Assembly (NCBI RefSeq): GCF_000340215.1
Contig: NW_006921542.1
Location: 1,082,267 to 1,146,266 of the forward strand
Source of the DNA: Pseudocercospora fijiensis CIRAD86
Lineage: Eukaryota > Ascomycota > Dothideomycetes > Mycosphaerellales > Mycosphaerellaceae
Direction: 5' to 3'
Length of the DNA stretch: 64,000 bases
Each line of letters starts with the position of its first letter. The first letter of the stretch is position 1. The notes under the pieces were generated by a model that saw only the letters and a list, made by a program, of their open reading frames with translations, did not search any database and was not told the origin of the DNA. A program made the position numbers and the translations under genes. This document shows, piece by piece, positions 12,076-12,717 of the stretch.

Positions 12076-12717
12076 CTAATCCGCTATAAATAGACGCCGA
12101 ATTTTAGCTAGAAGCTATATATCTTTATTTTAAAGAGTAACCCGCTTCGTATAGATAGTAAGGAGGTTTAAAAGCTTAAGCTCGGTTACGAGAAATGCCT
12201 CCGTAGCTTCCTAAAGAGCACTAATCGCCTTAGCCGTAAATCGTATACTAGACCGAAAATCTAATATAATTTCTCGGACGAGTCGCTAGAAGGGAGTCTT
12301 AGGGATTAAAAGCTCGGTCCCTCTTTTGTTTTAGAAAAGCCGGATCTAGCGAAGGGTAATAGTACCTAGTTTAAAGCGCCGCTTCTTTATAGTCGAGTCC
12401 TACCTTATTCCCTTTCTTTTAATAGAAAGATAACTTTTCTTCGCGATAGTCTTCGTCTGCCTACTCTTTTTAGCCTTCTCCTATCTACCTATAGCCTTCT
12501 TATTTTTCGGTACTATTTTCTAAGGAACCCCCTTCTTTCGTATATACTACGGAGAGCCTTACTCTTCCGATATCTCGTTCTCGCTACGGTCTCCCTATAC
12601 TTAGCTTACTTTACCTTTACCCTTTAGCCTCTAAAGATATTTATCTACGTATTTAGGCGATAAGGGTATATCGGTAGGACCTAGAAAATTAGTAAGCATA
12701 TAATCGTAAGGAGACAT
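12076..12717 (-). pseudogene. Histone H3-like protein with long N-terminal tail, RIP-mutated
   Basis: An ATG at 12,717 opens a - strand frame of 213 codons, broken only by TAG/TAA, closing at 12,076-12,078. From about codon 115 it follows a histone H3 fold. GTITLRxIRLF matches 'GTVALREIRRYQ', TELLIPKTPFxRLVREI matches 'TELLIRKLPFQRLVREI', IRFTAKAISAL matches 'LRFQSSAIGAL', EATEAFL fits, and TKRVTLxNKDIxLLAKIRR matches 'AKRVTIMPKDIQLARRIRG'. There is no CENP-A-type insertion in loop 1, but 'LLTIY(H)' and 'RVTL' are CENP-A-like residues. The N-terminal part, about 110 residues, is longer than the roughly 44 of canonical H3 and is rich in Lys/Arg and Ser, as in Cse4-sized variants. It lies 3' of a hAT transposase on the same strand. 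It may be a captured or duplicated H3 variant. It is dead as it stands. Confidence 0.82.

What the first reader, a model, noticed from the sequence alone, without database searches (positions are those of the whole stretch)
12076..12717. Histone H3-like gene of about 213 codons beside a hAT transposase
A clean ATG-led frame with an H3 fold and a tail of about 110 residues (canonical about 44) lies on the transposase strand. GCCGGC palindromes typical of the hAT copies flank it on both sides (about 13,005 and 11,995), which suggests it belongs to the mobile unit. A transposon carrying an H3 variant could influence chromatin or centromeric loading; that role is inferred.
Basis: partly seen in the sequence, partly recalled or inferred. 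Interest (0 to 1): 0.87.

Follow-up and report, generated by a model that had tools for sequence, protein, structure and literature searches.

The report
Dead jumping gene carrying two histones
A fungal jumping-gene family carries two histone H3-like genes; every repeat copy read here is broken, likely by the fungus's own repeat-mutating defence, and although the family appears to be one already published in 2019, one of its histone genes holds what looks like an intron, which argues against the published idea that a spliced copy was captured.

Summary
The H3-like frame is real but lies on the minus strand and is not clean: 14 in-frame stops in RIP-like DNA. It sits inside a ~9.9-kb hAT-type transposon with 20-bp inverted ends (706 genome matches, 0 in the control) and identical 8-bp target duplications in 6 of 7 copies with both ends read. 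The window copy has lost its left ~2.5 kb. Two histone-like genes were present in 20 of 20 fetched copies. The case appears already published: Dhillon et al. 2019, Pseudocercospora fijiensis (784 H3-like copies, 9.5-9.9 kb, 20-bp TIR, 8-bp TSD); this unnamed 73.9-Mb genome fits.

Additions: (1) H3L-1 has 213 codons with its own ~85-residue extension; (2) H3L-2 holds a GTAAGT...TTAG intron in 19 of 19 readable copies, next to the host H3 intron site, against 'retrocopy'; (3) indels inside H3L-1 are all in frame and its fold varies less than its tail: weak evidence of past selection. A CENP-A mark was tested and not met. In passing: a broken Argonaute gene lies beside a Plavaka transposase in 29 of 35 copies.

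The parts
12076..12717 (-). H3L-1: broken histone H3-like gene, 213 codons plus stop, 14 in-frame stops; about residues 1-85 a private extension, 86-112 a degraded H3-type tail, 113-213 the histone fold
10887..18384 (-). Left-truncated copy of the ~9.9-kb hAT-type element (lacks the left ~2.5 kb with the left TIR and H3L-2)
18365..18384 (-). Right terminal inverted repeat, 20 bp, TAGACCCCGTAGTGGTTCGG read inward
18385..18392 (.). Predicted right target-site duplication (8 bp); its left partner is lost with the truncation
   Evidence: inferred from other copies
13040..17307 (-). Predicted hAT transposase region upstream of H3L-1 on the same strand; judged by eye from stop-masked frames, no Pfam hit
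   Evidence: by eye; no hit; DUF659 reported by PMC6710886
11991..13030 (.). Inverted pair of 26-nt GCCGGC repeats around H3L-1 (arms 11991-12016 and 13005-13030); the same motif recurs elsewhere in the element
40670..45629 (.). Second, partial copy of the same element in opposite orientation, TIR at 40670; corresponds to 14089-18380 only; neither histone gene matched there

Best explanation
A 9.9-kb hAT-type DNA transposon carries two different histone H3-like genes between its inverted ends, and the copies read here are all broken in a pattern that repeat-induced point mutation (RIP) likely caused. Transposition, most likely by the element's own hAT transposase, spread transposase and both histone genes together through the genome. 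RIP then likely turned CpA into TpA and so made TAG and TAA stops. Before that the two histone genes were likely expressed accessory genes of the element: H3L-1 (the given finding) is a histone fold behind a long private N-terminal extension, and H3L-2 was likely captured as genomic DNA, since it holds an intron. What they did is inferred: the most likely role is a variant H3 that enters nucleosomes and weakens H3K9-based silencing of the element. Shown: position inside the element, two genes, broken frames, splice signals. Inferred: transposase identity, splicing, past expression, function.
For: Inside the element: 16 of 20 fetched copies match the window from 10887 on, past both sides of H3L-1; the 4 of subfamily C match from 12047 on. 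TIR TAGACCCCG at both ends and identical 8-bp TSDs in 6 of 7 copies with both ends read; 356+350 TIR matches, 0 in the reversed-pattern control. Two genes: 20 of 20 fetched copies match both H3L-1 and H3L-2 (H3L-1 in two pieces in L025, L026, L027), in three subfamilies about 80-91% alike. RIP-like: TA/AT 1.84 and (CA+TG)/(AC+GT) 0.13 at 12001-14000, against 0.36 and 1.33 at 30001-32000; 14 stops, all TAG or TAA; 10 of the 14 stop columns carry a sense codon in at least one of 14 other copies. Intron: donor GTAAGT and acceptor TTAG in 19 of 19 readable copies, 69-105 nt, all three length classes modulo 3; by eye it joins RLG to TVALREIR, and the host H3 has an intron 3 nt upstream of that point. 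Past selection, weak: indels inside H3L-1 are all multiples of 3 (A-C 21, 6, 3; A-B 12, 3), those just upstream (12718-13300) are not (A-C 1, 1, 7, 91; A-B 7, 13); fixed transversions fewer in fold than tail, A-C 11/303 against 25/309, Fisher p 0.025; H3L-2 codons 76-99, 7 of 10 A-C transversions at third positions, p 0.02.
Against: My Pfam scans found no hAT transposase domain in stop-masked frames, and none of the listed genome hits to DUF659 (21) or Dimer_Tnp_hAT (47) fell inside a fetched copy. The H3L-1 tail shows no codon-position bias (8, 8, 9); the fold's third-position excess is not significant (6 of 11, p 0.12), nor is fold against tail for A-B (p 0.17; B-C 0.038). H3L-2 codons 0-48 show no third-position excess. 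Of the sense residues opposite the window's stops, Q 33 and R 17, but also E 10, K 3 and V 3, which RIP alone does not turn into a stop, and 4 of 14 stop columns had no sense codon in any copy. The acceptor of the intron was part of my search pattern. No expression data. The tail alone found no relative at E 0.01.
Confidence: 0.55

Rival explanations
1. Passive cargo: a hAT captured a transcript or retrocopy of the host's housekeeping H3 (transduplication), amplified it by accident, and RIP killed all copies; the histone never served the element. This is the published reading (Dhillon et al. 2019).
For: PMC6710886 abstract, Background, Results, Discussion part 1. H3L-1 has no intron at the host intron site. 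The H3L-1 tail evolves without codon-position bias.
Against: H3L-2 holds an intron with splice signals in 19 of 19 readable copies. Both genes in 20 of 20 fetched copies of three subfamilies. Indels inside H3L-1 in frame. The H3L-1 fold is only 54-57% identical to host H3.
Confidence: 0.35
2. A captured centromeric histone (CENP-A) that could disturb centromere loading.
For: H3L-1 has a long tail and shares a NLLxI..KRVTL...AK.RRRF C-terminus with one unplaced metagenome protein, P0013, which has a loop-1 insertion and is 57-59% identical to H3L-1, slightly more than host H3.
Against: H3L-1 has no loop-1 insertion and RF instead of RW; identity to this genome's own CENP-A 49-52%, to its H3 54-57%. 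No tree was built.
Confidence: 0.04
3. An isolated H3 pseudogene that happens to lie beside a hAT.
For: Only the raw window, where the left end is missing.
Against: Copies elsewhere have the gene between both TIRs and TSDs.
Confidence: 0.01

Closest known systems
H3-carrying hAT of Pseudocercospora fijiensis (Dhillon et al. 2019, PMC6710886)
   Same: Almost certainly the same element; the genome here is unnamed.
   Different: The paper reports mostly truncated H3 (71-100 aa) and no intron, hence retrocopy capture. Here H3L-1 is a 213-codon frame with its own extension, and H3L-2 has an intron.
H3L hAT of Pyrenophora tritici-repentis (Manning et al. 2013, PMC3538342)
   Same: hAT with an H3-like ORF, insertions in the N-tail, neither H3 nor CenH3 (passages and section 20 part 1).
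   Different: 5.6 kb, mostly intact, ESTs present, a central unknown ORF; Dhillon et al. found no similarity between the elements' nucleotide sequences. Its protein was not among the best 120 hits listed, so I did not compare it.
TET/JBP-carrying DNA transposons of fungi (PMC12730594)
   Same: DNA transposons, some hAT, that carry an epigenetic-machinery gene (abstract start and passages seen).
   Different: A dioxygenase acting on methylcytosine, not a histone.

Membership tests
hAT superfamily | 8-bp target-site duplication | tested here: met
   Identical 8-bp TSD in 6 of 7 copies with both ends read: L011/L029, L012/L030, L013/L034, L014/L035, L016/L036, L022/L032; L023/L031 differs; 3 further right ends (L033, L037, L038) had no resolved left end
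hAT superfamily | Short terminal inverted repeats | tested here: met
   20-bp TIR, 706 genome matches, 0 in control
hAT superfamily | hAT transposase with DUF659 / Dimer_Tnp_hAT | tested here: inconclusive
   No Pfam hit in stop-masked frames of L011 and L009; listed genome-wide hits not inside fetched copies. DUF659, without the dimer domain, reported by PMC6710886
Histone H3 | Core histone fold above Pfam cut-off, H3 as best class | tested here: met
   PF00125 78 bits, cut-off 26.4; the 60 solved chains listed are H3 types
Canonical histone H3 | N-terminus ARTKQTARKS at residue 1 | tested here: not met
   An RRTKTIAKKS-like stretch starts at about residue 86; the frame starts about 85 residues earlier
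CENP-A / CenH3 | Longer loop 1 with W before the alpha-2 helix (marks recalled) | tested here: not met
   Alignment with this genome's own CENP-A (L039): 4 residues fewer in loop 1, RF for RW
Transduplicated retrocopy | No introns at host intron sites | tested here: not met
   Not met for H3L-2 (intron in 19 of 19 readable copies, 3 nt from the host site); met for H3L-1
RIP-mutated repeat | TpA excess with CpA/TpG depletion | tested here: met
   four 2-kb steps over 10001-18000: TA/AT 1.62-2.12, (CA+TG)/(AC+GT) 0.10-0.17; gene-like step 30001-32000: 0.36 and 1.33

The most novel reading that the evidence does not exclude
H3L-1 is a transposon-resident histone H3 variant, kept by selection through three subfamilies of a hAT, whose ~85-residue extension buries the K4/K9 region and so yields nucleosomes that cannot be silenced through H3K9 methylation; together with an Argonaute gene riding on a Plavaka element in the same window, it shows transposons of this fungus arming themselves with copies of the host's silencing machinery.
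Probability: 0.18. Interest if true: 0.75.

Novelty: already known. Interest (0 to 1): 0.35.

Why it matters
The core finding is published. What is added bears on how and why: an intron in one of the two histone genes argues for capture of genomic DNA, not of a transcript, and the long private extension with in-frame indels raises the question whether transposons keep histone variants for use against chromatin silencing. The mostly intact H3L genes reported in P. tritici-repentis make that testable.

Tried and rejected
Centromeric histone: rejected on loop 1 and identity; no tree was built. Isolated pseudogene: rejected. Window copy split by the neighbouring Plavaka: the missing left part was found neither in the window nor in the 2,467 bases before it, so simple truncation is kept. 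The 16-18-residue insert of H3L-2 as a second intron: worked out by hand from the printed frames, I found no GT...AG choice that keeps the frame; it has one length and no fixed A/B/C transversions, so it looks translated; unexplained. Homologue searches: the two profile searches were swamped by canonical H3 and longer H3-type proteins, with only the best 120 listed; the tail-only search gave 0 hits. Transposase by Pfam: nothing. Piwi matches ~250 bp from a hAT TIR (for example C1:6917244 beside C1:6916976) lie outside that TIR, so they are not hAT cargo (read off).

Choices and dropped rows: the 20 copies were picked by me from the list, mixed by open-frame length, so presence of H3L-1 in them is by selection; presence of H3L-2 is not. 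H3L-1 codon tests used 15 of 21 copies (window plus 14; L013, L018, L025-L028 left out for incomplete matches). The long alignment used 11 of 21. H3L-2 tests used 19 of 20 (L017 dropped for a local duplication, a first try with L017 in and L021 missed, is superseded). Papers: PMC6710886 abstract, Background, Results and Discussion part 1; PMC3538342 passages and section 20 part 1; PMC12730594 abstract start and passages; all others only in listings. Recalled, from no call: P. ulei as a listed crop pathogen of the same genus, the link of H3K9 methylation to RIP, loop-1 length and W as CENP-A marks.

Full report
What is there. Window 12076-12717, minus strand, reads as a histone H3-like protein of 213 residues from an ATG, but with 14 in-frame stops, 10 TAG and 4 TAA. 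With stops masked it matches Pfam Histone at 78 bits and, among solved structures, H3 chains best, over residues 80-207. The region shows TpA excess and CpA/TpG loss, the mark of repeat-induced point mutation, while the stretch at 30-32 kb does not.

It is a repeat. The window lies in an unnamed 73.9-Mb genome in 30 contigs. The Histone family gave 772 first-look candidates, of which 150 were scored; 148 of these contain stops and two are intact, read as the cellular H3 (L001) and CENP-A (L039). That the 148 all belong to this element is inferred from the 20 fetched.

The mobile unit. Of 20 fetched copies, 16 match the window from 10887 on, and the 4 of subfamily C from 12047 on. Right ends stop sharply at ...GGGGTCTA, window 18384. 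Left ends start TAGACCCCG, about 2.5 kb beyond where the window copy breaks off. One copy spans C1:506614-516535, 9.9 kb. Flanks show identical 8-bp duplications in 6 of the 7 copies with both ends read; the seventh (L023/L031) does not match. The TIR pattern occurs 706 times, 0 in the control. The window copy is truncated, not split: its left part is absent from the window and from 2.47 kb before it. So the histone frame is inside the element.

Two histone genes. A full-length copy scores Histone twice in one frame, and all 20 fetched copies match both H3L-1 and H3L-2. H3L-1: three subfamilies have 213, 210 and 205 codons. Indels inside the frame are 21, 6 and 3 nt (A-C) and 12 and 3 nt (A-B); just upstream, to 13300, they are 1, 1, 7 and 91 (A-C) and 7 and 13 (A-B). 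About 85 residues precede a stretch like RRTKTIAKKS that resembles ARTKQTARKS of H3, seen by eye; the match to H3 starts near there. Fold identity is 54-57% to host H3, 49-52% to host CENP-A and 57-59% to an unplaced metagenome protein, P0013; H3L-1 has no loop-1 insertion. H3L-2: its tail has GKAPRK-like repeats. An intron follows, GTAAGT to TTAG, in 19 of 19 readable copies, 69-105 nt, with a CTAAT branch-like site in 17 of 19, holding CCGG repeats. By eye, reading across it gives RLG-TVALREIR, and the host H3 gene has an intron at PG^TV, 3 nt upstream. The fold of one A copy (L011) is 66% identical to host H3; L009 and L025 are 55% and 52%.

Selection. RIP makes only transitions, so I counted purine/pyrimidine differences fixed between subfamilies. 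H3L-1 fold A-C: 4, 1, 6 by codon position in 303 sites; tail: 8, 8, 9 in 309; fold against tail p 0.025 (A-C), 0.038 (B-C), 0.17 (A-B). H3L-2 A-C: codons 76-99, 2, 1, 7 (p 0.02); codons 0-48, 4, 5, 6; codons 48-76 none among A, B and C. The evidence for constraint is real but weak; for the H3L-1 tail it rests on in-frame indels alone.

Stops. In 10 of 14 stop columns of the window copy another copy has a sense codon: Q 33 times, R 17, E 10, K 3, V 3; 4 columns are stops in every copy compared that has a codon there (15 copies). Most of this fits RIP, but E, K and V need other changes too.

Literature. Dhillon et al. 2019 (PMC6710886) describe such an element in Pseudocercospora fijiensis and five relatives, as capture of an H3 transcript by a hAT, estimated at about 100 My ago, with all copies but the original killed by RIP. 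Size, TIR, TSD, two H3 copies, the 16-residue insert and the intact H3 on scaffold 6 agree with what I found. Manning et al. 2013 (PMC3538342) describe a mostly intact H3L hAT with ESTs in P. tritici-repentis with N-tail insertions. The listings showed no later paper on the intron or on selection; only that library was searched.

Verdict. Already known as a phenomenon and, almost certainly, as an element. The intron in H3L-2 contradicts the published 'no intron, retrocopy' inference for that gene, and the 213-codon H3L-1 with a private extension differs from 'truncated'. A chromatin role is inferred. My scans did not detect the transposase domain, so the hAT label rests on TIR, TSD and the paper.

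Noticed in passing
window ~2219-3237 (+) and 7810-8634 (+): RIP-broken Argonaute domains (Piwi 5.2e-9, above its cut-off; PAZ 2.1e-5 and ArgoL2 0.0016, below theirs) lie 4-5 kb upstream of a Plavaka transposase (PF18759, 3.9e-36) on the same strand. Genome-wide, 29 of 35 Piwi matches of this class (model positions ~230-300; 64 Piwi matches in all) have a Plavaka match 4.0-6.0 kb downstream on the same strand: likely a Plavaka transposon that carries an Argonaute gene. One paper search listed nothing on it.
   Followed up: partly
G000 C1:8853279/8853632, C1:8896685/8897038, C1:10656734/10657087, C2:581713/582066: Facing hAT TIRs with starts exactly 353 bp apart (373-bp units) in four of the listed places: likely a short non-autonomous (MITE-like) derivative.
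   Followed up: no
window 40670-45629: Second partial copy of the same hAT, without a histone match.
   Followed up: partly
H3L-2 codons 48-76 (in L011 about 2480-2620): The 16-18-residue insert of H3L-2 and the codons before it show no fixed transversions among subfamilies A, B and C, even at third positions; cause unknown.
   Followed up: partly
P0013 (metagenome protein, 164 aa): H3-like protein with a loop-1 insertion sharing NLLxI..KRVTL...AK.RRRF with H3L-1; organism unknown.
   Followed up: partly
window 10690-10866: Palindromic GATCG-rich tandem block at the break between the Plavaka side and the truncated hAT.
   Followed up: no
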